DNA from: Simmondsia chinensis
Lineage: Eukaryota > Streptophyta > Magnoliopsida > Caryophyllales > Simmondsiaceae
Length of the DNA: 64,000 bases
Reading direction: 5' to 3'
Assembly: GCA_018398585.1 (NCBI GenBank)
Contig: JAGTTD010000013.1
Location: forward strand, 5,366,492-5,430,491
The notes under the pieces are model-generated. The model was given only the letters and a program-made list of their open reading frames with translations. It had not been told where the DNA came from and made no database searches. The translations under genes and the position numbers were made by a program. Below are positions 2,700-54,368 of this stretch, piece after piece (position 1 is the first letter of the stretch; every line of letters begins with the position of its first letter).

Positions 2700-2952
2700 A
2701 GGGTTTATTTATCAGGCACTAATGCACCGGATCTCATTAGAATTCCAAAATTAAGCATGCTTGGGTAAGAGTAATACCAGTATGGGTGACCTCTTGGGGA
2801 AGTCCTCGTGTTGCCAACTCTATAAGGTTGGGAGTCATCGGAAAGCCTTTCGGCAGGGTTACACCCTGAAGGGGTAAGGCTGCTCACATCCATCCCCCGA
2901 CCCTACTTAGGAGGAAGCCCTTGAGGCACTAGGTCTGTTGTTGTTGTTGTAT
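2700..2952 (+). mobile_element. 5S-rRNA-headed SINE, complete copy (head subfamily A)
   Basis: Head (about 2700-2817): starts AGGGTTTATTTATCAGGCAC and continues through CACTAATGCACCGGATC, TTAAGCATGCTTGGG and GTCCTCGTGTTGC, which is plant 5S rRNA from about nucleotide 1 to the 3' end. It keeps the A-box, intermediate element and C-box region. A hairpin-like bridge (CAACTCTATAAGGTTGGG) joins it to a tail shared with the RTE LINE copies. The 3' end is GGCACTAGGTCTG followed by (TTG)n. The target-site duplication TGGATGTATG lies at 2690-2699 and 2953-2962, proving retroposition. It is not a 5S gene, because it is single, fused and flanked by a duplication. Confidence 0.9.
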
Positions 2953-4607: not shown

Positions 4608-4620
4608 TTGTAAGTAATGA

Positions 4621-4870
4621 AACGAAAGGAAATGAACATACTCAGTGCCTCAAGGGCTCTCGTTTACGCAGGGTCTGGGGGGCAGATGTACCCAGTCTTC
4701 CTCCTTCAGGGTGTTAACCTGAAGAGAGGCTGTTTCCCAGTGCCCCCAACCTGAGAGTGAGGACTTTCCAGGAGGTCACCCATCCTGGTATTACTCTCGT
4801 CCAAGCAGGCTTAACTTCGGAGTTCTAATGAGATCCAGTGACGTCGTATTGGTAGCCTCTTTGGTTAAAT
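4621..4870 (-). mobile_element. 5S-rRNA-headed SINE, complete copy (head subfamily B)
   Basis: It reads on the minus strand. The 5' end near 4870 starts ACCAAAGAGGCTACCAATAC and runs into 5S sequence (GGATCTCATTAGAACTCCG, GAGAGTAATACCAGGATGGG). The RTE-like tail (GGTTGGGGGC ... GAGGCACTGAGTATG) ends near 4640 in a decayed tail. The 13-bp direct repeat TTGTAAGTAATGA at 4608-4620 and 4871-4883 is the target-site duplication. The 5S-to-tail junction (GTCCTC then ACTCTCAGGTTGGG) differs from subfamily A, which keeps GTGTTGC. Confidence 0.9.
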
Positions 4871-4883
4871 TTGTAAGTAATGA

Positions 4884-7073: not shown

Positions 7074-7075
<2 letters not shown>

Positions 7076-7310
7076 GAACATACTCGGTGCCTCAAGAGCT
7101 CCCGCCTACGCAGGGTCTGAGGGAGGCGGATGTACGCAGCCTTCCCCCTTCAGGGTGTTGACCTGAAGAGAGGCTGTTTCCGAGCACACCCAACCTGAGG
7201 GTGAGGACTTCCCAGGAGGTCACCCATCCTGGTATTACTCTCGCCCAAGCATGCTTAACTTCGGAGTTCTAATGGGATCCAGTGACGGTGTGTTGGTGCC
7301 CTCTTTGGTG
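7074..7310 (-). mobile_element. 5S-rRNA-headed SINE (head subfamily B)
   Basis: Minus strand: the head begins GCACCAAAGAGGGCACCAAC, then 5S text (GGATCCCATTAGAACTCC, AAGCATGCTTGGGCGAGAG, CAGGATGGGTGACCTCC). The GTCCTC/ACCCTCAGG junction matches 4621-4870. The tail GGCTGCGTACATCCGCC ... GAGGCACCGAG follows the RTE 3' end. The flanks on both sides are TA repeats, so the target duplication cannot be delimited and the ends are approximate. Confidence 0.85.
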
Positions 7311-20345: not shown

Positions 20346-21538
20346 GAAAAATAAAAATTGTTAAATTAATCTTAAAATATATAATTAATTTTAATGAACT
20401 TTTTTGTGCCTTTGGAGTAGTAAAACTTTTAGGTGTATTGCAGTACTACCACTATATCCTCTCGAGCCTTAGCCTTCTTTCATTTTGCGTTGAAGGAAAA
20501 ATGTTCGAGTATTTATTACATTAATATTTTAATATATATATCAGAATATATATTAAAATTTAAATATTTTATTATATTGATACATTAGGTTGAAATTTGA
20601 TAAATTTATGAAACAATCTGACTAATTTTGTACCAAAAATGCTGATATAAACATTATTATGATAATATATTAAAAATGTCAATGTTTTGCATCAACAATT
20701 ATGTGAATTGTGATAAAATGATTAAGAAATTTTTTATATAAACTACATAAATATTCCCAATATCATATGTTACTTTTTTCATTTTTGACAAAAACAAAAA
20801 TCAGATTCTAATCAAGTTACTAATATATTGTCGAAGCCGCATCCAATTTTACATTATCCAAAGAAATCGAATTTCAACAAAAAAAAAAAAAAAATTAGTG
20901 ATTGATAAAAATTTTAAAATTTTAGCTATTTAAGTGATAATATATTTAAAACTTAAGGTATCTCGTTATATATATATTAAAATGTCAGGATATCTAGTTG
21001 ATAAATAAGTAAAATGTCAAGATACCTATGATAATTTTTGGGGAAGAAATGAAACTCAATTTTATTAATATCTTTTTGAGATGCTTAATGTGTTAAAGTG
21101 ATTTATAAATATTACAGGTTTGGTAACCTTTTTCAAGTACTCGCCACATTACGCTGTTAAATATCTATTAATTTTTACTTACATTCAAAAAACCTTCAAA
21201 GGAACGATCAAACCTAGGTTTTAAACTGATGTCCGGAGGATTACATCCAATGTATGTGCATTTATTTTTTGAAAAATGGTTTGATTGGTTACTATTGGCA
21301 AAATGCTATACAAAATACCACCTTGCTGCACATACCACCCCCTTACGATGTGGTGACTAACGCAACTATTGTGGAGCTTACTAGCTCGAGAGGAGGCAAT
21401 TTGTATCCTAGAGCACCACCGTCACAATCACAAAATCGGATGAAGTAGCTAGTAGATAAAAAAAAGAAGTGATCACAGTTTCAACCGAGGTGACTGGGTG
21501 TAGCTTAAGATACATCTGTAATAGTCAACAACCAGTAG
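20346..21538. other. FBT1 upstream region, no further gene
   Basis: The sequence just upstream of the FBT1 start is AT-rich, without an obvious TATA or CCAAT arrangement in the first 200 bases. An A-run lies at about 20879-20894, and decayed repeat motifs (AAACTTAAGGTATCTCG) resemble those at 6000-6130 and 62131-62549. Confidence 0.45.
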
Positions 21539-21738
21539 CAAGCAACACTTCCAGTGCCTCAAGGGCTCCCGCCTAAGCAGGGTTTGAGGGGTGGATGTAC
21601 GCAGCTTTCCCCTTAAGGGTGCTAACCTGAAAAGAGGCTGTTTCCAAGAACCCCTAACCTGAGGGCTGCAACACGAGGACTTCCCAGGAGGCCACCCATC
21701 TTGATACTACTCTCGCCCAAATACGCTTAACTTTGAAG
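21539..21738 (-). mobile_element. 5S-headed SINE, 5'-truncated inside the 5S A-box region
   Basis: Minus-strand reading starts TTCAAAGTTAAGCGTATTTGG, so about 50 nucleotides of the 5S head are missing. It then continues through the C-box to GTCCTCGTGTTGCAGCCC and the RTE tail. The 15-bp direct repeat GTCAACAACCAGTAG at 21524-21538 and 21739-21753 brackets the copy exactly. Confidence 0.92.
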
Positions 21739-22602
21739 GTCAACAACCAGTAGAACGTCAAAAAACCAAAAAATTGTCCCTGAAGTTTTACGGTCCCTTC
21801 AAATTCTTGAGAAAATTGGGCAAATGGCATATTATCTCGCATTAACAAAACAAACAAGCATTCACTGTGGCAGGATCTTATTATAGAGACCATCCAAGTG
21901 TGAGGCTTGGCTATGTACCGAAATCGTGTTAAGGTCTTGATCAAATGACAAGAAAAACCAGCTAACGAAGTGAACTGAGATTTCTGACAAATTTTCAAAA
22001 ATATTATCTGTTTTCAACGCTTGCAAACAAGAGTCTCATTGAGACGGGAGTATTTATACAACAGAAAAGGAGAGAGAAGATTCACATCTTCAACAAACAC
22101 AAACAACAACAACAACAGATTCAGTGCCTCAAACGCTCCCGCTAGAGGTGGCCACGGGCCGGGTCGGGATAGGCCCCGGCCCAGGCCCGCATTGTAGTGG
22201 GCCTGGGTGGGCCGGGTCTGAAGGCTCAAACCAGGCCAGGCCGGACCGGGCTTGGAGCCCAAAATATTTGGGCCCGGCTCGGCCTGACCCGGTCCCCCCC
22301 CCCCCAAATTTTTTAAATAAAAAAATATAAACTTAAGGAAAAATAAACTCATTTTGTACAAAAATTATTATAATTCATTGATGAATAATATAAGATACAA
22401 ATACAATCCATCACAATCTTTAATCATTATTTATAAAATATATGATATAAAATAAAATATATAATAAATAATAGTAAATAACGGTAAATAATGTAACAAA
22501 TGTAACTACAACAGTTGGATCCTACTATTTAAAAGTACAAATATATTTATTACAAAATAAAAACAAGATATAGACGTACAGGTACAACAATACGAAATCA
22601 GT

Positions 22603-24806
22603 CTATTGGGGGGTTGTTGTGCCGCCGTCTGACGTATCGGTAGTGCCGTCGTCTTCATCCTCGCTTGATGAACCCAGCCTCAAGTCGTTTTGCTCACTAG
22701 CCTCTGTGTGCATCCAGTCCTTTAAGCACACGGACATCTCCAAGCTGGACGATGATAGCTTCGCCCTCTTCGTTTCAAGCAACCTGCCACCAAGATTAAA
22801 CGCACACTCCGATGGTACTGAAGACACCGGACACATTAGTATATCACGTGCCATGGTGGAAAGCACGAGATACCGGGCTTGATTTGTACACCACCATTTT
22901 AAAATATCAAATTGCGGATTCGCCGGTGTCGCGAAGAACTGGATCATCGGCGTCCGCAAATATTAATCTAACTCGTCATATGATATGGGAGTTTTTGCTG
23001 GCGTCAATTGGTCCAACAGTGTCCACGCATATGACGACTGTGAACTAATTCCACCAGATGTGGAAGATCCTACTGTAGTAGAAGTAGCTTGTGGATTATC
23101 AGATGATAATCTCCGGGAATAACGAGAAAATAAAGTGTATAGGTCTCTATCGACTTGCTCAATGAAAACTAAGGTATTAAAAGTCGGATCTAATTTTCCG
23201 TAAAAATATTCGGTAAACAGGTTCAAACCCCTTCGTTTACAACGGGGATCGAAAATAGTTGCAAAACAATATAAAAGAGGTAGTTCAAGAAAATATTTAA
23301 AAAAATTTCGTTTTCATTGCTGCAATCGATGCGGCCAACAAGGGGTTTGATTCATTACTCGACATCCAATTTACAATATCAATCAATTTTGATATTGCTT
23401 GTGGTATAGTCGGATAATAGCAACCCAAAAAAAAGTTGGTAGCCTCCCTAAACATGGTAAAAAATTTACAAATTTCATCAACTGTGTCCCAATGTACATC
23501 GTTCATATTATAATCACTTAAATCTGAATGAGTATCCTATACAAATTCCATCAGGATATCCTTATATGGTAAAATTCGATCTAACATATCTACCGTTGAC
23601 GACAACCTAGTTGGCGAGTCTAATTTAAATCGTTTATACTCTAAGTCATACGTCCTACATAGAGATCTAAATCTTTTTTTTTGGTTCCGGATGATTTTAT
23701 AGCTATTGTTACATCTCTTAGGTGGAAAGAGAAGCGTTTATTAGACCTAGATCATCCATAACCATTAAATGTAGTATGTGACACATGCAACGTAGATGAA
23801 AACACCGCCGACCTAACACAGGTCTCATATGCTTAATTAATTGTTTAGCGGATGCATTGTTATTGGTAGCTTTGTCGAACGTAATACTAAAAATACGTTG
23901 CTCTATGCCCCAACCTCGGGCTGCCTCCATAATCGCACCCGTGATTATGTCGGCAGTGTGGGGGTAATCTAAATTTACAAAATGGATTATTCTTTTTTGG
24001 ATGGTGAAGGAGAAATCGATCCAGCGTGCTGTTATGCATAAGTAAGGCACACCAGGTTTCGACTTCCAAGTGTCGGACGTCAACGAGAACATGCTCGTGT
24101 TCGTCCGAAAAAGTTCAAAGACCTTAGTTTTCATCCTTTGGTAATCTTTAAACGCGTCCCGCTTTAAGGTGTTCCGAGGAATCCTTACGATTGTGGGGTT
24201 CACCGCTTTTTGCATATACCTGACGAATCTCGAGTCTTCGCCGGTGCTAAAAGGCTTTTCAACCGCAATTACATACCTAGCTAGCGCCCGTCTATTAGTT
24301 TCCTGGGATAATTTAAAGTTAGCAAGCGCACCGGTCGCTTGCTGTATTAATCGTTGTTGGGCTCTTTCTGGGTCTTGTTCGAGGTGGGACTTAACTATAT
24401 GTCTACTTAATGTGCCCGTCCCACTGCCGAGTGGATGACTAAAGGCCTTGAGTGGGTTATATAATTTACAAAAAACTTTATTAACTTCCCTATCTAAGTT
24501 AAAATGCTTCCAGACCCCGCTATTACTACGCCTAGTAGTACTAGTTCTTAAGGGCTGCTGGGTTTCTGTGGTAGGTGTGGCTTCCTTTTCATTTTGTGAG
24601 TCAGGACAATCCTGCTCGTTGTAGGACTGTTGCTTAAAGTCTCAATCTATACTGTCAGTGTATGGAGGTGATGGGCCTGGTTCTAGAAAAGCTCGTTCAT
24701 CAGTATTAAGTTCGACAATTCTACTCCTCTTAGGTATTATAAGCGGTCGTCGAGAAGAACTAGAACTCGAACGACCAGCTCCAGACGATGATGTGTTGTA
24801 TGCCAT
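22603..24806 (-). pseudogene. hAT transposase, degenerate
   Basis: Begins MAYNTSSSGAGRSSSSS near 24806. The catalytic-domain region at 24215-23718 has SLTSDTWKSKPGVPYLCITA and the RCFHLRCMCHILHL motif typical of plant hAT (RICESLEEPER-like) proteins. Further pieces lie at 23506-23297 and 23226-22963, and the C-terminal dimerisation domain at 22959-22603 (ILKWWCTNQARYLVLSTMARDIL, then VSSVPSECAFNLGGR). Stops (for example TGA at 24642-24644) and frame breaks separate the pieces, so no active enzyme is expected. No BED finger is intact in what I can read. Confidence 0.85.
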
Positions 24807-25433
24807 GATGATAATATTACTGATCAGTATTTTAAAAATGCAACTATTAATGCAAAATTATGAAATTAGTAATGCATCTCATATTTACGTATCTTTTAAT
24901 TGTTACTTTAATTATTTTGCACCTATTTAATTATAGTTCTACATTCATTTTGGCAATTTTTATGTTTAACATATTTGAAATTAAAGTTCCGAAAATTGTC
25001 AAATGTTGGTGCAAATGAGGCAAATTCGATGTATAAACAATTAAATCAAGTCAATCGAGATTCGTGACAAGAACGTATAAGCTCGCCCCGCTTCGACCCG
25101 AACAAGCACTGTTCACCGTCCTCAACAGCAGCCCATCCACCTCCTACCCAGACCAGCAGCAGCGGCCCAGCCCAGAACGAACACTCTGCCCCAGCCCAAC
25201 AGCAGCACGTCATCATCAACCTCCAGCCCAGCTCCCCTGCTCGTCACCACCAGCACTGTTCCTAGCAGTATCAGGCCCAACACCCAACAGCCCCTGTTCC
25301 AGCCCACGACCCCTGCCATCGACAGCCCAAACACCACCAAACCAACACCAAGCCCAAACATCAACGCCCGGCCCAACTCCGGCCCGGTCGACCACCATCT
25401 CCACCTCAACCCACCGCCCCTGTTCGGCCCATC

Positions 25434-25640
25434 TTTTTTTTTTTAGTTAGAGTTGGTATGCTCTGATACCATGTGAGAATGAGAGTTAGTGGAGCATACC
25501 CAATAGAATTGCTGTGACATATATTTATAGTAAAGAGTACAAGAATAATTACAGAATATTCTCAGAATAATATCAGGATAATATCAAAATAAAATTAATA
25601 TAAAATCAATATAATCTAATATATCCTAATACCAAACACA
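25434..25640 (-). mobile_element. Poly(A)-tailed copia LTR-leader retrocopy
   Basis: Minus strand: TG-starting LTR text (TGTGTTTGGTATTAGG ... ACTATAAATATATG ... CTCATTCTCACA), directly followed by the tRNA-Met primer-binding site TGGTATCAGAGC (25460-25471), about 20 internal bases and an 11-base poly(A) (T-run 25434-25444). The 7-mer GCCCATC occurs at both borders (25427-25433, 25641-25647). There is no second LTR. A deletion product of an ordinary element is the alternative, but the A-tail plus flanking repeat fits reverse transcription by a LINE better. Confidence 0.6.
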
Positions 25641-25899
25641 GCCCATCGTCAGCGGTACCCGCGCATCACCGACCAGACCTCCGGCCCACCACCAGCGTCC
25701 TGCCCACCACCAACACCGACTTAGGGTTTCGTCTCGATTTAAAAGGAAGAGGGGGCTCGATTTTGGAGAGCTACGGTCACGAGTTTTGGTCTCTGGTTGG
25801 GGGTACCACCGCCTCAGCTCTTTCTCCTTCTTCCCCTGTTCTCTCTCTCTCATATTAAATTTTTCTTTATTTTAATTTTTCGTTAAATTGGAACGAGAG

Positions 25900-26660
25900 T
25901 GAAATTAGCATGGAGATCAACATGAGTTTGTTCAACATCTTCTTCACCGGATCATCCTTGATTGAGAGCTAACTTGCTCTCTAGGGTTAGATGAAATCTT
26001 AGCCTTTACTTTTGTTTACTTTTAATTCGGGTTAATTTGATTGTTTACATGAATTGCTCGGTTGAGATAAATACTTTGAAGTATTATATTTTTATTGTTT
26101 ATTCAATTGATATGATTATTAAGTTTGTAACATTTAATTGTTGATATTGATATTTATAAATTAATTCTTTGTGCTTGTAGCCTTAGGATTAATTAATCAA
26201 GCAATAGTATTAACCGAATTGTTAATTAAAGCCTATCTTTCCTATGCTTTAGTTAGATATGGTCAATACGTAATAATTAACAATACGTAAGGTAAAGCTT
26301 ATTTTTCTTATGCTTTAGTTAGATAGGGTCAATACGCAACACTAACACATTATCTTAATAGGTTGAAGCTTGCAGCCTAAACCACTACCCGTGTGAGAAT
26401 TAATAATCTCAATTTAAGAGTTAACGCAAAAAAAATTGGCTAATGATGGATTTAAAATCCTAGGTTCCAATTTATTATATTTTTTCGATTAGAAGGAGAT
26501 TACTTTAGTTTAATTGTCGTTTTCTAGATTAATTAACACAAAGATATCACTTTTCTTTTAAATCAATTTAGGTCATAAATTAAATTCACGCACTCTTAAT
26601 CCCTGTGGATCGACACCCTCTCGCCCTACACTTCAATTTTGGTGTGTTTAATAGATAGGG
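25900..26660. repeat. Probable LTR debris with an internal tandem duplication
   Basis: AT-rich text with two related units at about 26226-26274 and 26291-26340 (each containing CTATGCTTTAGTTAGATA and GGTCAATACG). A segment near 26600, CCCTGTGGATCGACACCCT, recalls Ty3 (Athila/Tat-like) LTR 3' regions. No termini were found. It lies within the hAT long arm. Confidence 0.35.
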
Positions 26661-26930
26661 TTTTATATTAAATTTTGATAGACGTAGAAAAACACATCAA
26701 TTAGGTAGATAACTAGGAGAAAACAAATAAAATTTCGATACTAAATTTACCGAAGCAAGTGAAGCGAACTATAAAAGTTGAACTTGAGCGAGATTCTCCG
26801 AGCCGAATGCTTTGTCAACAACGAACTTTAGAAATTTAGAATACAATATTGCAAGTAGAAGAAGTATGTAGATGAATGTATAGAGAAAGAAGAGAGAATA
26901 AGAGATTTGTTTGTGAGGAAAATGAAATGA

Positions 26931-27860
26931 CGACAACAACAACAACAACAATCCAAGTGCCACAGAGGCTCCCGCACGAGCAGGGTCGGGGGGGTGGATG
27001 TACGTAGCCTTCCCCCTTCCGGGTAGAAGAGAGGCTATTTCCGCAGACCCCCAACCTGAAGATCGAGTCATCATGCAAACATGGTATCCTACAGATCATA
27101 GAAGCCACAAGCATCAGCTTTGAACCCCTCATAGGACTAGCACTATAAATATGCCCTACATGAGACAACTACAGGCACATAATAAAGCCAATAGTACATG
27201 GCCAATAAAAGCCGAGTAATTGGAAAACAACTAAACAGCAGATAAGTACACTACCTGGGGTTATGACTGCCTAGAAATCTTAAACTACCATTCACTCGCC
27301 GCACTATTCTACGCTGCCACATCCGCTATCCTTATGCTAGCCCTCCGTCGTGCCCTATCTAAGGCCATCTCCTCTCTTAGGTTTAGGTGGGTTAGATCGT
27401 GTCGGATCGTCTTCAACCAACTCCTCTTTGGCTTGTCCCTCCCTCTTCTGCCTAGCGTAGTATGTAGCTGTTCGCACCTCCTGACTAGAGCTGTGGTCGG
27501 TCTCCTGCTAACATGTCCAAACCATCTCAGGCGGTGCTCCCTCAATTTATCCTCGATCGAGGCTACACCCAATTTACCTCTTATTATATCGTTCCTGATC
27601 CTATCTTTCCTTGTGTGGCCACACATCTAGCGCAGCATCCTCATCTCTGCCACCTTCATCCTCTGTGTTTGATTTTGTTTCATTGGGCGACACACTGCCC
27701 ATATAACATAGCCGGTCTTACTATCATCCTATAGTATTTTCTCTTTAGCTTTAGCGGGAACTTTCTATCACAAAGCACCCCGGATTCCATCCTCCACTTC
27801 TGCCAGCCTACTTTAATCCTGTTGTTGACATCCTCATCCACCTCACCATTATGGTGTATT
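26931..27860 (-). mobile_element. 5'-truncated RTE-clade LINE inserted in the hAT element
   Basis: Minus strand: degraded 3' part of the ORF (27860-27306), about 240 bases of 3' UTR, then the tail block GGTTGGGGGTCTGCGGAAATAG ... GGGAGCCTCTGTGGCACTTGG and (TTG)n at 26931-26951. The 9-bp direct repeat ATGAAATGA (26922-26930, 27861-27869) is the target duplication. The tail is homologous to the 3' half of the 5S-headed SINEs, which identifies this LINE family as their likely mobiliser. Confidence 0.9.
27306..27860 (-). pseudogene. RTE LINE reverse transcriptase C-terminal fragment
   Basis: Translation of 27626-27309 gives MCGHTRKDRIRNDIIRGKLG, IEDKLREHRLRWFGHVSRRP and a basic end, a signature of plant RTE-type LINE polyproteins downstream of the RT domain. 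Upstream pieces ([20 protein letters not shown], then [12 protein letters not shown]) are in broken frames. The palm motifs are absent because of 5' truncation, so it is inactive. Confidence 0.85.
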
Positions 27861-28653
27861 ATGAAATGAATGGATTAGATATTTCTAGATAAAAATAAAG
27901 TATTTTTTTTTAATTAATTTGGAGGGGGAGCAACGGCTCCCCCTCAAACGGCTCTTTTAAGAGCCGTTGCCAACGGGTAGTTGTTAACGGGCCTGGGCCG
28001 GGCTGGGCCTCGACCCCATTTTTCTGGGGCCCGAGGCCTGGCCTGCTTGGGAACCGTGCCGCGTCTTGGCCCACGTGGGTCGAGCCAAGCTGGGTTACGG
28101 GTTGACCCGACCCATTGGCCACCTCTAGCTCCCGCCTAAGCGACATTTGGGGGTGGATATACGTAGCCTTACCCATTCAAGGTGTAACCATGCCGAGAGG
28201 CTATTTTCGAGGACCCCCAACCTTATAGGGTTGGCAACACGAGGACTTTCCAGGAGGTCACCCATCCTGGTACTACTCTCGTCCAAGCACACTTAACTTT
28301 GGAATTCTAATGGGATCCGATGCATTAGTGCCTGATAAATGAACCCTTCAACAAACACAAACATTTAAATAATTTTATTGTTTTTGCTTATTAGTTATTT
28401 CCATTTCAATATTTGCCTGTAGGCTATAAATCTAACTGATTGTAATGGTGAATTTCATCAATGAATGACGAATTATTCAGAATTCACCTATCAATTTAGC
28501 AGCTTCTTTTATATCATTTTTTATTTGTAATTTTTAATTTTTTTAAAAACTAAAAATTATACTTTAGAAAGTATTTTTTTTTATTTTTGATTTTATTTTT
28601 AATTTTAATTTGAGTAAAAATTCATAACATGAAATTAAAAATATAAAAATATA

Positions 28654-29038: not shown

Positions 29039-29914
29039 AAAACAATATTTGTATAACCTTTTTTTTTGGTTCTTATACAACCCAAAATTACAAAATGAAA
29101 ATAAATACCAAACAACTCTAGTTTTTAGAATAGTTGGCTCTGTGTTAACAAAGTTTTAAAATCATTTGAGCGTAAATATAAAATCATTCTTGATCCTTCA
29201 CTTATCAGATTAAATTTAATAATTATTTATGAAATATATATATATATAACAAAAATAAAGACGGGTAAATTACATATTAAGGTGTGATATATTAATTATT
29301 TAGTCCATAAACTTTATAAAAAAGCTTTTTAATCCAAAAGTTATAGTATTTAACAACATGTCCGGACGACGATGTGAAAGGATAAAAAATTAATGTCATT
29401 TTTTGGAACTCCGGGGTTCTCTCATTATTCTCCCTCATCCACACATGACCTGCAAGGTTGTCACAATTCTAATATAAAAGAGTTGGATAAGAGACCTATT
29501 TTACACTCTATACATTGCGATTTCTATCTTAAATTTTGGTGTATTAATTTTTTAATGTACAAACTTCATAAAATGAATTTTTACTCTGTTAAGCAATTTA
29601 CCAAAAAACAAATAAAGCAAACCCATTTCTTCTTATCTCAATCCCTCTTGGTAGGTCCTAATTCTAAGTATTGGGACGTTCAGCTTTCCTACATGAAGGC
29701 AAAGTACAGCCTCTATCTCAGTAATGAACAACCCCACGTCGATTCTTTAGCTTCTATTGCTGAGATTGCTGACTATAAAAGGTGAAAGAGAAAATTTGGG
29801 CAAAATACTTACCTAGACGGGGTCAAGGGGTGATCAAGAAGACCCATTGCCTAGACCAGTAGCTCTCATTGCACTTTGAGAGTGTGCTCGCCTACGTTCT
29901 CCTTGTAGTAGGAG
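29039..29914. other. Gene-free spacer
   Basis: AT-rich. A 130-codon plus-strand frame at 29393-29785 has no recognisable domain, no conserved spacing of motifs and no splice context, and is treated as fortuitous. About 29260-29340 has MITE-like text. Confidence 0.4.
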
Positions 29915-30121
29915 GGTAAAAACAACGATACTAATAAAAAATCTAGTGTTTTAAAGGCTCCTGTATAAGCAGGGTGTAGGGGGGTAGATGTACGCGATTT
30001 TCTTTCTTTATGGTGCTGCCTTGAAGAGAGGTTGTTTTTGAGTATCCCTAACTTGAGAATTTGATTTGCAGTATAGAGTAAAAAGCTTGATAGCAGGAGA
30101 GCATCAAGCATGAGTAGGGCT
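29915..30121 (-). mobile_element. 5'-truncated RTE LINE tail
   Basis: Carries the RTE 3' UTR plus tail on the minus strand (block near 29950-30060), with a decayed terminal repeat. The 10-bp repeat GTAGTAGGAG at 29905-29914 and 30122-30131 brackets it. Confidence 0.75.
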
Positions 30122-31469: not shown

Positions 31470-31480
31470 ATAGCTCAGGA

Positions 31481-31730
31481 CAACGATGACGACAACAACA
31501 ATAGTCTCAGTGCCATAAGAGCTTATGCGTAAGCAGGATCTGAGGAGGGTGAATGTACGCAGCCTTCCCACCCTGAAGGGAGGCTGTTTCCGAGGACCCC
31601 CAACCTGAGGAGTGTGCCGTCATGGAAGTATAGTAGCCTGTAAGTATTGAGAGCAGCAAAGTATTAGAGCAACACATAGCACAAGCCAAGCATAACAAAG
31701 CAAAACTCAGTGGACGGTAACTATTTTACA
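31481..31730 (-). mobile_element. 5'-truncated RTE LINE, 250 bp
   Basis: Minus strand: 3' UTR, the tail block (GGTTGGGGGTCCTCGGAAAC ... GGCACTGAG) and (TTG)n-like repeats. The exact 11-bp duplication ATAGCTCAGGA lies at 31470-31480 and 31731-31741. Confidence 0.88.
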
Positions 31731-31768
31731 ATAGCTCAGGAATTAGACATATTTGTCATAGTGTTTAA

Positions 31769-31884
31769 ACCAAAGAGGGCAACAACACGCCATCACCGGA
31801 TCCCATTAGAACTCCGAAATTAAGTGTGTTTGGGCGAGAGTAGTATCAGGATGAGTGACCTCCTGGGAAGTCCTCACCTTCAGG
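31769..31884 (+). mobile_element. 5S SINE head without tail (subfamily B)
   Basis: Starts ACCAAAGAGGGCAACAACAC, runs through GGATCCCATTAGAACTCCG and GGATGAGTGACCTCC, crosses the subfamily-B junction (GTCCTCACC) and stops at TTCAGGAAAG. All RTE-like tail sequence is missing, so it is a 3'-deleted copy. No target duplication is found. Confidence 0.8.
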
Positions 31885-33115: not shown

Positions 33116-36100
33116 TCGATGGAAAACGAAAAATTCGGAAGCAGATGTGTAATCCCGTTCTAAGAATGTATCGGATATTTTGGTTAGTAACTTGCTAAAC
33201 GTATTTAATTTGGGTATTATTTTGTGTATCAAATGATGTGATATAAAAATTAGATTATAAGAGATTATATTAAATTAATTACTTTATTGTAAGCTATTTT
33301 TACCATATGCGGTGATAGACAAACTCCAAGTGACTCAAGCAGGTTGCTTGGGGCCTCCCACAATTTTATATTAAAATTTTTCTTTTTGAGAATGCATCTC
33401 AAAATTTTTTCATAGTATTGAGAATACTATTTTAATATGAAGAATTCAACAAAACTCTACATTTCAACAAAGAATAACTTGAGTTAAACTATCCAAGTTA
33501 CTTTTGAGCTGTTATTGGCTCATTTTTGAGCTAATATTAACTGTTAACGAGCCTTCAGTGAGCTTTGAACAAGCTTTGAACATGCTCTTATTGATTCATT
33601 TATGGGCTCTTATCAAACTATTAACGAACATTAACGAGTTGAGTACTCTCCCATTTAACTCAACTTGCTAAATTTATTGAGCCTGCTGGAACTTGGTTGA
33701 TAAGATATCGAGCCCCAATTTTTTTCCGATAATTAAGATTACAAAAGTTTCCAAGCTCAAAAGCCATGGGAGCTATCGAGCCCTAATAACGAACATAAAA
33801 GAGCCATAATCGATTTCAGACACATGAGCGAAAGAAAATATAAATCAAGCCTGGTCAAAATCCATCAACTGCATCAAATAACTACACAAAATTAGGCATA
33901 GATGATGCGTCAAGTAACTAATTACCTCAAAAGTTTAAACTATTAAGTTAAAACCAACCTATAAATATAGTTTTTAACGTTGGTTATATCGATTGAAAAT
34001 GAGTGGATAAGGGGTATAAGCGCATCGTTGAATCAGACTCAAGGGTAGCAATTTTATGGGTGATTGGCTCGGTTGGATCTTCTTGGACACTTGATTTTGT
34101 TTTCAGTAAACTCGGGAGGATTGGCAGGGGAAATGCATAGATACTCGTTCTTCCAACGACATCGGCAGGTAAATAGGTTGGCTGATTATATAGTGGAATC
34201 GGGAATAAATAGGAGGAGAAGCATATGTGTTTTCAGTTTCTGTATCTTTTGTATACTTAGGTTTTCGGCTTAATTTTGAAGGGGACTTTTGATGACTAAC
34301 CATCTATCAAAATAAGAGAAGAATAGTTTTATCATCCAACATACCTCTCACTAAGGGTGCAAACGAATTGAAAGTTTAATGAACTATTCGTATTTGAAAC
34401 TAATTACAACTCATTTGTGTTTGTTATTGGAGCTTAGTTGCCTATAGACCCCCAGTTCAAGGAAACTCAATAAATATAACTAGCCAAATTCAAACAAGGG
34501 GTACTCGACTTGTTAATATTCGTAAATGGTTTGATAGGAGCTCGTAAAGGGATCAATGAAAGCTCGTTAAAGATTCATTAACAATCAATATTAGCTTAAA
34601 AAGAATTCAATAATAGCTCGATAGTAACTCAAACAATTCAACTCGATAGTAAGCTCGATTAAATAACAAGTTCAACTCGATTATAAGCTTAATTCAATTC
34701 AATAATGCATCAATGACAGGCTCACAAACTAACCTAAGTACCAAATACACTAAAACTTTATCAAACCGATTTCAAACAGCCCAAGTTAATACTTTATTGT
34801 TGGAGTCCTCGAAAGAGGACCTCTCCAAAAATAGACGTACGCCACTTAAAAGTGAAGAACACACGGTATTCTTTAGTAAAAGGCGAAAGAATAGTTCGCT
34901 CTGTGTTCACCACATGGCTGCGTAGAGAAGTGTGTAGGGCAAGCGACGCCTAAGTACTAAGCATCCCACCCAAATATTTTCCTGTTGCCGATGTGGGAAG
35001 TTTTCTTTTAACCCTTCCTCAAAGTGCAAAATGGACATGTTGGGAATAATTACATTCAAGTATAAACGAAAGCATAAAATCAACTTAAAAATTGAAACAA
35101 TCAGTACCAGTATTTACCTGGAAGCTCTCTGTCGACTAGAGGGAAAAACCACAGGTCCCAAATGGATGCCTCATCCACTATAAAATTAAGGATTACAATT
35201 TCTAATTATAACTTCCAACCCCATACAATCATCATCAACAATTATCATCATCAGTGTGACTATTGCATGGTAAGTCACGAACTCTCTCAGAGTGTAACTG
35301 TTGCACGGCGAGTCACCAACCCTCTCAAAGTATAGTTTTTGTACGGTGAGCCACCAACCCTCTCAAAACATAACTTTGGATAAAGAAAGCTACATAACTA
35401 TCAAACTCAATCAAAACACCTCACTGATCACAAAAAAAAAAAAAACAAAAAAAATAAAATAAAACACCTCCAAAAGAAATCTCTCACTCTTCACCTGAGG
35501 CATCCCTTTACAAATCTCACAATACCTCACATTTTTCCTCTCTTCTCTTCATCTTTTAACCATCAATCTTAACCCCTATTTATAATTGAGTTACCTAGTC
35601 ATAATAGCAATCAAGCCTCAATTAGATTAGATAACTAAATCACATCAAATATCCCAAATCAAATCTAAATCAAATCAAATAAATATTAATTTTGATATAA
35701 ATAATATCCTAACATATGTAAGGGCCAAAGGTCGAGTCTATATTTTCTAATTGTCTCACTACATTTTAGAAGTGCTTTTTTGTTACTGCAAATCATCTAA
35801 ATTTTATATGCAATTTTAACAAACTCCCAACATTTTCTAATTTTTAAGATATCATGTCTATACTTTCCAAAATTTTTTAATATCACACTTTAGTGCAAAA
35901 GTGAGAGAAAATAATTAAAAAATTTTGAATTTATAGTTTAAAAATTTTAAAATATTTTAAATACTTAAACAAATTTTGAATATCTAAAAAAATTGTTGAT
36001 AGTTAGAAAAGTAATTTATTTTTTTCGATAATTAGCGACCAGTTCACAATACAATTCAGGCGCTCGAGCTAGCAAGCCCTAAAAAATCCGTTAAAAATGG

Positions 36101-42224: not shown

Positions 42225-44049
42225 ATGGACCCCTTGTCAGCGCTCCGAGACTACACAATCCGCGGTGATCTCGACAAGATCCACCGCGCAGGGACGGAGT
42301 TCCGCTTCGGCGCGGACTACACTTTCCCCTGCACTATTGACACCGCTTACCGTTCCAAACAAGGCAATCTATACACTCTCGAAACCCTAATTTACTTCAT
42401 CAACAACCACCATCTCCGCCACACCGATTATCTCCAAAGCGCGCGCACGCGCGGCATCCCCGCTGTCACCTTCATCGACCGCAAGCCCTTGCTTGACTAC
42501 CTCCATGGGCGTGCCGCCTCCTCCGACGCCATTGAGCTCTTTCTCCCTCCTCAAAACGCCGCTGTTGCCGCAGCGGGAAATGACGAGTATCGGCCTGAGG
42601 AGCCTCAGTTTTTGTCTGTTCATTCAAATGCGGCTACTGGGGGTGCGGAGAATGATGGGTTTGATGTGGGTGTTGATTTGGGTTCGGAAGTTAGGGTTTT
42701 GGAAACCCTAGACTATACGGGTTTGATTAGGGCTAGTGAGAGGCCTCTTAGGGATAGGGAGGAGGTGTTGCAGTGTAGGAATAGAGATTTTTATAGTGTT
42801 TATATATCAGCGTTGAAGAGGGAGGAAGAGAGGCAGAGGGTTGAGTCGCATCAGAGGAAAGATGGGTTGGTGGCGAAGAATCGGTTGATGGCAGGGGAGG
42901 AAAGAGGAAGAGGGTATCGCGAAGAAGGGTTTGATTCTGGGTCGAAGGGCAAGATGTTGAAGGGTGGGAAGATTGGGGAGGGGGTGCCGATTATTCTGGT
43001 GCCAAGCGCATCGAGTACGTTGATTACTATCTATAATGTGAAGGAGTTTTTGGAGGATGGGGTGTTTATACCGATGGATGTGAAGATGAAACAGATGAAG
43101 GGGCCAAAACCGGAGTGCGTAACGGTGCAGAAGAAGTTTAGTAGGGATAGGGATAAGGTGGTGACCGCGTATGAGGTTAGGGATAAGCCTTCTATTATGA
43201 AGCCTGAGGATTGGGATCGAGTTGTTGCGGCTTTTGTTTTAGGGAAGGAGTGGCAGTTCAAGGATTGGCCCTTTAAGGACCATGTTGAGATCTTTAACAA
43301 GAGTGAGTGAGATTTTGTACTATGAAATTTCGGGTTAGTCCCGTTAATGCTTAAACCCCCATTAGGAAACGCATCACAAAATAACAACGAAAAGTTCAAC
43401 AAAAAAACGAAACAGCGGACAAGATTTAAGTGGTTCGGCCAAATTTGCCTACGTTTACATAGTTGCAAAGATTTCAATATTTCTTGGAAGGTTTTATAGA
43501 GAGTTCCTTCTTTTCTCTTCCACTTTCTCAAACTCTGAATAGGTTTCATAAACAGAAGGAAAAGACCATTATCCCTCACATTAAACCTCCAAATGGGCCT
43601 AGTCCTAAAACAAAGCCCAAAAAATTAGCATGTAGTATTCATGTCATTCAGTTGCTTTCTGCTCCTATCTGTTTCAAGTTGTTTTACGCATAAATCGTTA
43701 CTATATGGATTACTTGGTGAGGTGATAAATATTTGGATTTTGTAGTTATTGGGTTCTTCATGCGTTTTGAGGATGACAGTATAGAATCAGCAAGAAATGT
43801 TAAGCAGTGGAATGTAAAGATTATCTCGGTTAGTATCCTCTTTGCTGAAGCTATTTGACCGTCTATTTTGATCATGCCTTCATGTACATTTCATCTCTGT
43901 TATCTTGGCATATTGATGTTAATACAACATCCGGTGTACATAATTCTGATATACAGATTAGCAAAAACAAACGACATCAAGACAGGGCTGCAGCTCTTGA
44001 GGTCTGGGATAAGTTGGAAGAGTTTATGCGCTCCCGATCTCATTCTTGA
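42225..44049 (+). CDS. CDC73: CDC73 / parafibromin homologue (PHP), Paf1 complex subunit
   Basis: A 417-residue nuclear protein of the Paf1 complex, which travels with RNA polymerase II and supports histone H2B ubiquitination and H3K4/H3K36 methylation; in Arabidopsis CDC73 acts on FLC and flowering. Exons: 42225-43302, 43746-43828, 43957-44049, all GT-AG, phases closing. The N-terminus MDPLSALRDYTIRGDLDKI and HHLRHTDYLQSARTRGIP are family hallmarks. The C-terminal Ras-like Cdc73 domain runs from about residue 255 (GVPIILVPSASSTLITIYNV) through KDWPFKDHVEIFNK and ISKNKRHQDRAAALEVWDKL to the end. Length matches the Arabidopsis protein as recalled (about 415). The 5' UTR abuts an L1 remnant. 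LTPG is the convergent downstream neighbour, as I recall for At3g22590/At3g22600. Confidence 0.96.
43330..43640 (-). repeat. Probable LTR remnant in CDC73 intron 1
   Basis: Contains AAGTGGTTCGGCCAAATTTGCCTACG, a phrase typical of plant copia LTRs, with GGGCCTAGTC and AAGCCCAA motifs nearby. No TG..CA termini or duplication were identified. Confidence 0.35.
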
Positions 44050-45370
44050 GGTTCCTGAGCCTGTGCTGTAAGTTCCTTCTGCAGATCTGCTTTGTAGATT
44101 TAGAAGTAGCTTTGCGATGTTCTAGGCATTGAGATTCTGAAATACAACTTAAGTTTTCAAATAATTAGTCAAATTCTATGTCCTTCCATGAATTTCTGGT
44201 GTTCTTCTAGATTATGCTTCCATATTGATCAATTGATAATTTGATTAATGGTCAACCAATTTGCATTAAAGAGTCATCTCTTCCAAGGAGTCAACCCGGA
44301 AAGAGGAAGAACACCAGGTTAATGAAGTTGTGGATTTTGTGTTCGCCCCTTTAAATATTTTGATTTATTGTATCGTATCTGTAAATATCGATTGATGTAG
44401 GAAAATACTGGCATTCCGTTGCTACGCTGTAAAATATCTTACTGTATTTTGTTAAAAAGGATATGTTGCTAGAATTTCATTTCAGGTGCGCTTGTTCTTT
44501 GAGATTTCCGGCTGTACAGCTTTATTTTATGGTATGTAGTCCCTGCTTTTCGACCTTCCACGGATTTTTCGTTAGAAAAACTGCAGGGTTTTTTTTTTTT
44601 TTGTTTTGCAAATTCTCTCAGTATCATAATCTCATGTGACTGTTGAGAGCTCTTGAAGGGTAATTTTCACTGAACAAATTGCATTAAAGTGCTCTTAATG
44701 AAGGTATTTTGATCAGATTGGAAACTTTATTGATGTATCATGGATCAAATCTCGCTTCATTTTTTCTTCTATTACAAAAAACACTACTCAAAATTTGGAA
44801 GCTCTAGTGGCAGAGTCTTCATGAATTTGATCCTTTTACGTGATCAAACATTTATCAAGTTAGCAATTGTAAGTTAGATCGGTACCTTGCTTCGAACACT
44901 GTTGTTGATCAATGACTTTCTTAAGGGCTTAGAAGAGTGGGAAAATGAGGTCTATTTTATTTTTCTTTGTACAGTGACTGGGTAGAATTATTTATTTATT
45001 TATTTATTTTTGATAAGTAGTGACGAGGTAGAAGCTAAATTAACCGAGAGAAGTAACGGCATTCGACTCTTAGGAATCTATTTGATGCAATTTTAATTGC
45101 GAGTACAACCTCGGGATTATAAAGGATTATGCAATACCATTTTGTTTCGCAATTTTATCGTTACTTGGAGGGGCCTTGGGGCGCTGAGTTTGGTGATATT
45201 CTCACTCTCAGTACTACGCTCCTGCTTAACTTATGTTGGTGTCCCCTTTTACGCAAAGAAACTGCTTTGGGGGCATCATAATGTTGACATTCAGACATTT
45301 TGTGGATTAACTTATTGCCTATCATTGCTTTATGCTTTCTATGTTCCATTGTGTTTTATGCTTTTCAGGT

Positions 45371-45497
45371 TGGGGGTCCTCGGACATAGCCTCCCTTAGG
45401 GTAGCTCCCCAAAGGGGTAAGGCTATGTACATTGCACCCTCCCCAAACCTTGCATATGCGGGAGTCCTTGAGGCACTGGGGTTTTTGTTGTTGTAGG
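45371..45497 (+). mobile_element. 5'-truncated RTE LINE tail
   Basis: GGTTGGGGGTCCTCGGACATAGCC ... AAAGGGGTAAGGCTATGTAC ... GGGAGTCCTTGAGGCACTGGGG then TTGTTGTTG. No clear flanking duplication. Confidence 0.8.
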
Positions 45498-50577: not shown

Positions 50578-50588
50578 TTGCTATGTAT

Positions 50589-50839
50589 AGGGTTCATTTA
50601 TCAGGCACTAAGGCATCCAATTCCATTAGAACTCCGAAGTTAAGTATGCTTGGACGAGAGTAGTACCAGGATGGGTGACCTCCTGGGAAGTTATCCTGTT
50701 GCCAACCTTATAAGGTTTGGGGTCCCTGAAAACAACCTCTCGCTAGGGTTATACCCTAAAAGGGTAAGGCTGCGTACATCCACCCCTCCCAGACCCCGCT
50801 TATGCGGGAGCCCTTGAGGCACTAGGTCTGTTGTTGTTG
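50589..50839 (+). mobile_element. 5S-rRNA-headed SINE, complete copy (head subfamily A)
   Basis: Begins AGGGTTCATTTATCAGGCAC, with the 5S body well preserved (AACTCCGAAGTTAAGTATGC, GACGAGAGTAGTACCAGG, ATGGGTGACCTCCTGGG). The bridge CCAACCTTATAAGGTTTGGG can pair into a hairpin. The tail (GGCTGCGTACATCCACCCC, CCCCGCTTATGCGGGAGCCC, GGCACTAGG) ends in five TTG units. The target duplication TTGCTATGTAT is at 50578-50588 and 50840-50850. It is the best-preserved copy here. Confidence 0.95.
50638..50686 (+). promoter_or_regulatory. 5S-type internal Pol III promoter in the SINE head
   Basis: A-box-like AGTTAAGTATGC (50639-50650), intermediate element GAGAGTAG and C-box AGGATGGGTGACCTCCTGGG (50668-50687) lie in the order and spacing of a 5S rRNA gene (type 1 Pol III promoter). 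They differ from canonical plant 5S at only a few positions. Whether transcription factor IIIA still binds is inference. Confidence 0.7.
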
Positions 50840-50894
50840 TTGTTGCTATGTATGTTTATGCACAATATTTTTCTATTTCTCATGGGGTAAAGGC

Positions 50895-54099: not shown

Positions 54100-54368
54100 T
54101 TGGAAACAGCTTCTCGTCAGGATATCACCCTAAACGGGTAAGACTGCGTACGTCACACCCCTTTCAAACCCTGCTTATGCGGGAGCCCTTGAGGCACTGG
54201 GTATGTTATTACAACAACAACAACAACAGTCCCAGTGCTTCGCGGCTCCCGCAATAAGCAGGGTCTGGGAGAGGTGGATGTACGCAGCCTTACCCCTTCC
54301 GAGTGGAAAGGAGGCTGTTTCCGAGGACCCCCAATCTAAAGAGGCACTGGGTATGTTATTGTTGTTGT
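54100..54368 (+). mobile_element. RTE LINE tail, outer copy of a nested pair
   Basis: Begins TTGGAAACAGCTTCTCG, contains TATCACCCTAAACGGG and GCTTATGCGGGAGCCC, and ends TTGTTGTTG. The 14-bp duplication AATATCCTTTTTAG lies at 54086-54099 and 54369-54382. It is split by the inner copy at 54211-54340. Confidence 0.88.
54211..54340 (-). mobile_element. RTE LINE tail, inner copy in inverse orientation
   Basis: Minus strand: TTTAGATTGGGGGTCC ... TGTACATCCACC ... GCTTATTGCGGGAGCC then (TTG)5. A perfect 20-bp duplication of the outer tail (GAGGCACTGGGTATGTTATT at 54191-54210 and 54341-54360) brackets it. Confidence 0.92.

What the first reader, a model, noticed from the sequence alone, without database searches (positions are those of the whole stretch)
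50589..50839. A plant SINE family with a 5S rRNA head
Seven copies (2700-2952, 4621-4870, 7074-7310, 21539-21738, 22106-22142 plus 28128-28345, 31769-31884, 50589-50839) carry near-complete 5S rRNA sequence with A-box, intermediate element and C-box, fused to an unrelated 3' body and a (TTG)n end. Five are bracketed by exact or near-exact direct repeats of 10-18 bp, so they moved by retroposition. Most described plant SINEs, as I know them, have tRNA heads; 5S-headed SINEs (SINE3 type) are known from fish and some mammals. Seven copies in 64 kb implies many thousands in the genome.
Basis: partly seen in the sequence, partly recalled or inferred. Interest (0 to 1): 0.88.

Follow-up and report, generated by a model that had tools for sequence, protein, structure and literature searches.

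The report
Plant SINE with 5S rRNA head
A flowering-plant genome carries a short jumping DNA, likely present in tens of thousands of copies, that joins a near-whole 5S ribosomal RNA sequence to the tail of a longer self-copying element (likely of the RTE type) and is likely copied by that element's enzymes; our keyword searches of open papers turned up no earlier plant case.

Summary
Seven 5S-headed copies lie at the stated places; six pass Rfam's 5S cut-off, the 5'-truncated one does not. The window belongs to an 831-Mb plant genome; 13 of 20 systematic 10-kb stretches hold 15 such copies, about 60,000 by extrapolation. Of 56 full-length copies 43 have target-site duplications (12 of the 14 not picked as best matches), against 33 of 3,080 mismatched flank pairs. 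The head is in register with the plant's own 5S rRNA. The 'unrelated' body is the 3' end of an abundant, likely RTE-type LINE: 12 of 12 LINE flanks fetched, of 136 places scored, carry it. A T stretch before the duplication partly matches the published plant-RTE signature. So this is a SINE3-type element in a plant, predicted to be Pol III-transcribed and RTE-mobilised; it is not Cassandra. The closest named analogue is springhare Ped-1 (5S plus BovB tail). Eight keyword searches of open papers listed no plant SINE with a 5S head; Repbase, Dfam and closed journals could not be checked. Species, spread among plants and expression are untested.

The parts
50589..50839 (+). Full-length 5S-headed SINE, subfamily A: 5S-derived head 50589-~50706, LINE-derived body ~50713-50828, (TTG)n tail
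   Evidence: cmscan 5S 44.9 bits; profile E 5e-74; sequence
50578..50588 (.). 5' copy of 11-bp target-site duplication TTGCTATGTAT
50843..50853 (.). 3' copy of the 11-bp target-site duplication
2700..2952 (+). Full-length copy, subfamily A, 10-bp duplication TGGATGTATG at 2690-2699 and 2953-2962
4621..4870 (-). Full-length copy, subfamily B, 13-bp duplication TCATTACTTACAA at 4608-4620 and 4871-4883
7074..7310 (-). Full-length copy, subfamily B, inserted in an (AT)n tract (duplication not informative)
21539..21738 (-). 5'-truncated copy (head starts near 5S +44), exact 15-bp duplication at 21524-21538 and 21739-21753
   Evidence: (28.6 bits, below cut-off)
28128..28347 (-). Head and most of the body of a copy (subfamily A) split by an insert; 16-bp duplication at 28348-28363
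22106..22142 (-). 3' end of the same split copy; 16-bp duplication partner at 22089-22104
31769..31884 (+). 3'-truncated copy (subfamily B head plus a few bases of body), no duplication seen
26943..27072 (-). LINE 3' end without 5S head (5'-truncated LINE copy), same body as the SINE; similarity to other LINE copies continues upstream
31496..31611 (-). LINE 3' end without 5S head; ATAGCTCAGGA repeats at 31470-31480 and 31731-31741
45362..45489 (+). LINE 3' end without 5S head
54100..54210 (+). LINE 3' end without 5S head
54221..54341 (-). LINE 3' end without 5S head

Best explanation
It is a plant SINE family made of a near-complete 5S rRNA sequence fused to the last ~125 nt of a LINE that is likely of the RTE clade, and it is predicted to be transcribed by RNA polymerase III from the 5S internal promoter and likely inserted by the LINE's protein, which would recognise the shared 3' tail and (TTG)n end. 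Shown: the head is in register with 5S rRNA from nucleotide +1 and close to the plant's own 5S genes; the A-box, intermediate element and C-box stretches (positions recalled) are nearly intact; body and tail equal the LINE 3' end; copies have long target-site duplications; one window copy is 5'-truncated with an exact duplication. Inferred: Pol III transcription; mobilisation in trans by the LINE; origin by template switching or RNA ligation between 5S rRNA and LINE RNA; later split into three subfamilies (A, B, C) that differ most in the first 24 nt and at the junction.
For: 5S head in 7 window copies and in 15 copies of the 200-kb sample by profile, of which 9 pass Rfam's cut-off. Consensus A matches the plant's own 5S at 84 of 88 positions from +25 to +112, C at 83, B at 78; in-register identity is 95, 89 and 92 of 107 for A, B, C against 19-34 at shifts of 1-3 nt, measured against a plant 5S typed from recall. 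Consensus C runs through the last bases of 5S (GTGTTGCACCCC) straight into the LINE sequence, where the genes have a T run. Body: L013 holds open frames matching RVT_1 (E 6.8e-18 and 3.2e-9) whose 3' end matches consensus C at 105 of 116, B at 110 of 124, A at 111 of 129; 12 of 12 LINE 3' flanks fetched, out of 136 places scored, carry the body in the same orientation. Duplications: 43 of 56 full-length copies versus 33 of 3,080 mismatched pairs, median 16 bp. Target site: T at -12..-8 is 105 of 205 versus 280 of 738 at -30..-13 (p 8e-5); TTT at -13..-7 in 19 of 41 versus 4-9 of 41 in the eleven farthest of 17 control windows (14-18 in the six nearest, which overlap it); a T stretch there is published for plant RTE LINEs and their SINEs (PMC13295347, passages). 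40 of 40 scored matches to consensus A are 94-98% identical, on 20 contigs; 39 of them span at least 245 of its 251 nt.
Against: No expression data, so Pol III transcription and present activity are untested; the best copies differ from the consensus by 2% (two of them helped to build it), so no very recent insertion was seen. The RTE label rests on recalled motifs and the tail, no tree. Of the 56 full-length copies 42 were picked as best search matches, all near subfamily A; of the 14 others 12 have duplications (rows), one of these in an (AT)n run. 13 of 56 gave none at the threshold. The T stretch is modest and the published TA part of the signature is not seen: the base after the first T is A in only 11 of 43.
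Confidence: 0.91

Rival explanations
1. The 5S sequences are LTRs or solo LTRs of a Cassandra-type TRIM, which carry 5S rRNA sequence and move with LTR-retrotransposon enzymes.
For: Cassandra is a known plant element with 5S-derived sequence, located about the middle of its LTR (PMC10853983, passages).
Against: The element starts at 5S +1, not in the middle of a longer repeat; it ends in TTG-type repeats; duplications have a median of 16 bp, where the TRIMs Ajax and plant Helenus have 5 bp (PMC10886601, passages; Cassandra's own figure is in no call); the body equals a LINE 3' end in 12 of 12 flanks fetched; the two same-strand copies 2.4 kb apart share only the element itself in the repeat list.
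Confidence: 0.02
2. The copies are many separate 5S/LINE chimeras made one by one by template switching, not one replicating family.
For: In mammals LINE-1 repeatedly forms chimeras with 5S rRNA and snRNAs (PMC13174262, passages).
Against: Copies share the same junctions and the same non-5S changes within subfamilies; 40 of 40 scored matches to consensus A have the same head-body fusion on 20 contigs, though these were scored because they are the best matches.
Confidence: 0.03
3. The copies are dispersed 5S pseudogenes or derive from one segmental duplication.
For: The head is near-complete 5S rRNA.
Against: 19 of the 22 head-bearing pieces of window and sample also carry body (alignment; L013 by a separate piece); duplications differ from copy to copy; 46 of the 47 scored 5S gene matches lie on one contig, C8.
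Confidence: 0.01
4. It is a SINE with this anatomy but already described, in Repbase, Dfam or a closed journal, under a family name I could not see.
For: Only CC-licensed papers were searchable; Seibt 2020 and Kojima 2018 are not held; listings were capped (for example 30 of 145); one potato repeat study found unnamed repeat families matching 5S rRNA in Rfam (PMC4524691, passage).
Against: A review gives tRNA as the source of plant SINEs (PMC9033089, passage), and a 2024 5S/Cassandra paper names animals as its example of SINEs with such promoters (PMC10853983, passage).
Confidence: 0.35

Closest known systems
Ped-1 SINE of springhare (Pedetes)
   Same: 5S rRNA promoter head plus BovB (RTE-clade) LINE tail, as listed in Table 1 of PMC3747384 (passage)
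   Different: Mammal; different 5S and different LINE; presumably an independent origin (inference)
Tobacco TS SINE / RTE-1_STu pair
   Same: Plant SINE sharing ~100 nt of 3' end with an RTE LINE, both ending in TTG repeats (PMC3747384, passage)
   Different: TS has a tRNA head with A and B boxes; this family has a 5S head
SINE3 class (zebrafish SINE3, AmnSINE1; lepidopteran HaSE3; 5S-related SINEs of Aspergillus)
   Same: 5S rRNA-derived head; 3' end shared with a LINE where listed
   Different: Listed tails of SINE3, AmnSINE1 and OS-SINE1 are CR1-4_DR-like or RSg-1 (PMC3747384); animal or fungal hosts; here an RTE-type tail and a plant host
Cassandra TRIM
   Same: Plant element carrying the 5S internal promoter
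   Different: 5S about the middle of an LTR; moved by LTR-retrotransposon enzymes; here no LTR, 5S from +1, LINE tail, ~16-bp duplications
Angio-SINE superfamily (Seibt 2020, known here only through citing papers)
   Same: Plant SINEs with a conserved 37-bp 3' domain; may include RTE-type tails (inference)
   Different: The domain's sequence was in no call, so membership could not be tested

Membership tests
SINE (general) | Short, dispersed, no long ORF | tested here: met
   251, 235 and 246 nt consensus; best matches on 20 contigs; frames of the consensus
SINE (general) | Target-site duplications and 5' truncation as from target-primed reverse transcription | tested here: met
   43 of 56 versus 33 of 3,080 controls; truncated copy with exact 15-bp duplication
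SINE (general) | Pol III transcript | not testable with these tools
   No RNA data; longest T run is 3 (A), 2 (B), 4 at the tail (C)
SINE3 (5S-headed) type | Head derived from 5S rRNA with A-box, IE and C-box | tested here: met
   Rfam matches; boxes 15/15, 6/6, 18/18 in consensus A against a recalled plant 5S with recalled box positions; own 5S
SINE3 (5S-headed) type | 3' end shared with a LINE | tested here: met
   12 of 12 LINE flanks fetched; L013
RTE-mobilised plant SINE | Tail shared with an RTE-clade LINE and ending in TTG repeats | tested here: met
   RVT_1 match. Sharing and TTG end are shown; RTE clade assigned from recalled motifs and the TTG tail, no tree built
RTE-mobilised plant SINE | T stretch ~10 nt upstream of the duplication, duplication starting with TA | tested here: inconclusive
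   T stretch present: 105/205 versus 280/738; first base T in 26 of 41; second base A in only 11 of 43
Cassandra TRIM | LTR pair with 5S inside, PBS/PPT, short duplications | tested here: not met
   No LTR pair around the copies, 5S from +1, median 16-bp duplications, LINE tail; PBS/PPT not searched by program
TS SINE (tRNA-headed, same tail type) | tRNA-derived head with A and B boxes | tested here: not met
   5S head instead; ARAGORN finds no tRNA in the window; a loose A/B-box scan of body-only copies gave 4 weak pairs, none convincing
Angio-SINE superfamily | 37-bp Angio-domain | not testable with these tools
   Paper not held; domain sequence in no call

The most novel reading that the evidence does not exclude
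This is the first 5S rRNA-headed SINE of plants: a lineage in which an RTE LINE captured a whole 5S rRNA, so that the SINE runs on the ribosome's own promoter, and which grew to tens of thousands of copies. It supplies the class of donor (a plant SINE3) that has been speculated to have given Cassandra its 5S promoter.
Probability: 0.55. Interest if true: 0.72.

Novelty: new variant of a known kind. Interest (0 to 1): 0.6.

Why it matters
[quoted passage not shown] Thousands of 5S-like copies could also inflate 5S counts. Gene source, LINE partner and SINE are all visible in one genome, so head capture and tail recognition become directly testable. It also gives a plant example of the SINE3 type that has been speculated to have donated the 5S module of Cassandra (PMC10886601, passage), a proposal that had no plant SINE3 in the passages seen here.

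Tried and rejected
Helix-I mimicry: I suspected that the altered first nucleotides keep pairing with the junction as in 5S helix I; shuffles matched or beat the observed duplex in 2,045 (A), 74 (B) and 508 (C) of 5,000, so this is dropped.

tRNA-headed siblings with the same tail: none convincing among body-only copies; these look like 5'-truncated LINE ends.

Spread to other plants: no plant genomes other than the window's own are searchable. A 47-letter junction pattern gave 0 matches in viral contigs. A translated antisense frame crossing the junction hit one Phaseolus protein, whose sequence looks like antisense 5S repeats only; this says little.

Species: two protein searches were made. 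CDC73 (window 42225-43307) is closest to Ancistrocladus (72%) and Nepenthes (69%), with Camellia (69%) and Liquidambar (68%) close behind; the GNAT gene points nowhere. So a eudicot, perhaps near Caryophyllales, unresolved.

Literature: eight keyword searches listed no plant 5S SINE; some lists were capped, closed journals and Repbase are missing, so this is not proof.

Full report
Observation. A profile built from the seven finds them all with E 8e-32 or better, the 3' end of the split copy, and 14 further places (E below 0.01) that match only the body. Five copies have clear direct repeats of 10-16 bp; the 7074 copy sits in an (AT)n tract and the 31769 copy is 3'-truncated. The split copy is one element: a 5,985-bp insert with similar inverted ends and an 8-bp duplication GCTCCCGC lies between 22143 and 28127, and the outer 16-bp SINE duplication is intact.

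The genome. The window is part of an 831-Mb genome in 35 contigs. I took 20 stretches of 10 kb, each at position 1,000,001 of a contig, without regard to content. They hold 53 matches to the profile, 15 of them with a 5S head (profile start at or before position 60), in 13 of 20 stretches; 9 of the 15 also pass Rfam's 5S cut-off. That extrapolates to about 62,000 head-bearing copies, roughly 35,000-100,000 by counting error alone (my arithmetic). The stretches lie near contig ends, which may bias the figure. The loose first look for the window copy listed 7,223 candidates, of which 40 were scored.

Retroposition. Of 21 full-length copies, 18 had duplications (score 10 or more) against 7 of 420 mismatched flank pairs. 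With 35 more copies, chosen as best matches to consensus A, 43 of 56 had them (score 11 or more) against 33 of 3,080, with a median length of 16 bp. Two of the 43 were dropped later as simple repeats. Only 14 of the 56 come from the window and the systematic sample, 12 of them with duplications (11 after the drop); the other 42 are best matches of two searches.

The head. Of the 47 best 5S matches of the genome, 46 lie on contig C8, in arrays near 4.69 and 6.41 Mb. Their 119-nt sequence ends in GCACCCC, followed by a T run in the array that I read. The head of consensus A equals the first array's sequence at 84 of 88 positions from +25 to +112 (C 83, B 78), while the first 24 nt are poorly conserved (10-11 of 24 against a recalled plant 5S). 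Against the same recalled sequence the A-box, intermediate element and C-box stretches are 15/15, 6/6 and 18/18 in A (14, 6, 18 in B; 13, 6, 17 in C), and the register is exact from +1. Box positions are recalled. Head and own 5S share T39, which the recalled plant 5S lacks; the own 5S also has changes at 81 and 95 that consensus A lacks. This would fit capture from an ancestral 5S of this lineage, but rests on a recalled comparison.

The body. Several body-only copies share sequence further upstream. In L013 the upstream part holds open frames, two of three matching RVT_1. The LINE's last 116-129 nt match the SINE consensus at 86-91%. A protein search of the genome scored 136 places of 18,611 first-look candidates, 83-100% identical. 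I fetched the 3' flanks of the 12 best after L013 itself: 12 of 12 carry the SINE body in the same orientation; the nine that were printed end in TTG repeats. So the SINE is 5S rRNA plus a LINE 3' end. The RTE label rests on recalled reverse-transcriptase motifs, the tail and the published pattern that plant RTE LINEs end in (TTG)n or (TTGATG)n while almost all plant L1s end in poly(A) (PMC3747384, passages); I built no tree.

Insertion signature. Ohshima's group reports that plant RTE LINEs and their SINEs insert about ten nucleotides downstream of a T stretch, with duplications that begin with T, followed typically by A (PMC13295347, passages). Here T is 105 of 205 at -12..-8 against 280 of 738 further out (p 8e-5), TTT occurs at -13..-7 in 19 of 41 copies (4-9 of 41 in the eleven farthest control windows, 14-18 in the six that overlap it), and the first base is T in 26 of 41. 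The second base is A in only 11 of 43, so the signature is matched in part. The (TTG)n tail can also blur where a duplication starts.

Subfamilies. Three groups appear: A, starting AGGGTTCATTTACC with a (TTG)n end; B, starting ACCAAAGAGGGT with a shortened junction; C, starting ACCTAAGAGGGT with the full 5S 3' end. The 40 scored matches to consensus A are 94-98% identical on 20 contigs, 39 spanning at least 245 of 251 nt. The closest copies seen are about 2% from the consensus, so I claim no present activity.

What it works like and what it is. It works like springhare Ped-1 (5S head, BovB tail) and, for the tail, like tobacco TS SINE with its RTE partner (both from PMC3747384). By the features tested it is a SINE3-type element. 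It is not Cassandra. Membership of the Angio-SINE superfamily could not be tested because the domain sequence was in no call. [quoted passage not shown] what seems new is a plant case. Origin by template switching or RNA ligation is inferred from mammalian LINE chimeras.

Limits. No plant repeat database, RNA data or species name was available. Novelty rests on eight keyword searches of CC-licensed papers, seen as listings with the starts of abstracts, some capped; of these I saw passages of PMC10886601, PMC10853983, PMC8825457, PMC11490119, PMC3747384, PMC9033089, PMC13295347, PMC13174262 and PMC4524691.

Noticed in passing
window 22143-28127: 5,985-bp insert inside a SINE copy, ends TAGAGGTGGCCA (15 of first 20 bases matching between ends) and 8-bp duplication GCTCCCGC; looks like a hAT-type DNA transposon (recalled features). 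An ORF inside (23718-24641) gave no Pfam match.
   Followed up: partly
window 34804-34919 (-): U5 snRNA match, 88.2 bits, well above the cut-off; gene or retrocopy not decided.
   Followed up: no
window 29805-29936 (+): U1 snRNA-like sequence (52.3 bits, below cut-off 69.5) directly abutting a LINE 3' end in opposite orientation (29935-30059); could be a U1/LINE chimera or two insertions.
   Followed up: no
window 15221-18364: Pair of direct repeats (300 nt at 97%, 149 nt at 95%, 79 nt at 90%) 2.65 kb apart enclosing a frame with aspartyl protease matches (16040-16960): a short, rather young LTR retrotransposon; the other frame between the repeats was not scanned.
   Followed up: no
window 31470-31741: LINE 3' fragment (31496-31611, -) bracketed by ATAGCTCAGGA repeats about 250 bp apart: a 5'-truncated LINE insertion next to the 31769 SINE copy.
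   Followed up: partly
G000 contig C8, 4.685-4.702 and 6.396-6.414 Mb: Two 5S rDNA arrays on one contig with different spacing and slightly different 5S sequences (positions 12, 24, 106).
   Followed up: partly
window 42225-43307 (+): CDC73-like open frame of 361 aa, shorter than most named relatives (about 400 aa) and only 72% identical to its best match: a diverged or decaying copy, or a fast-evolving lineage.
   Followed up: no
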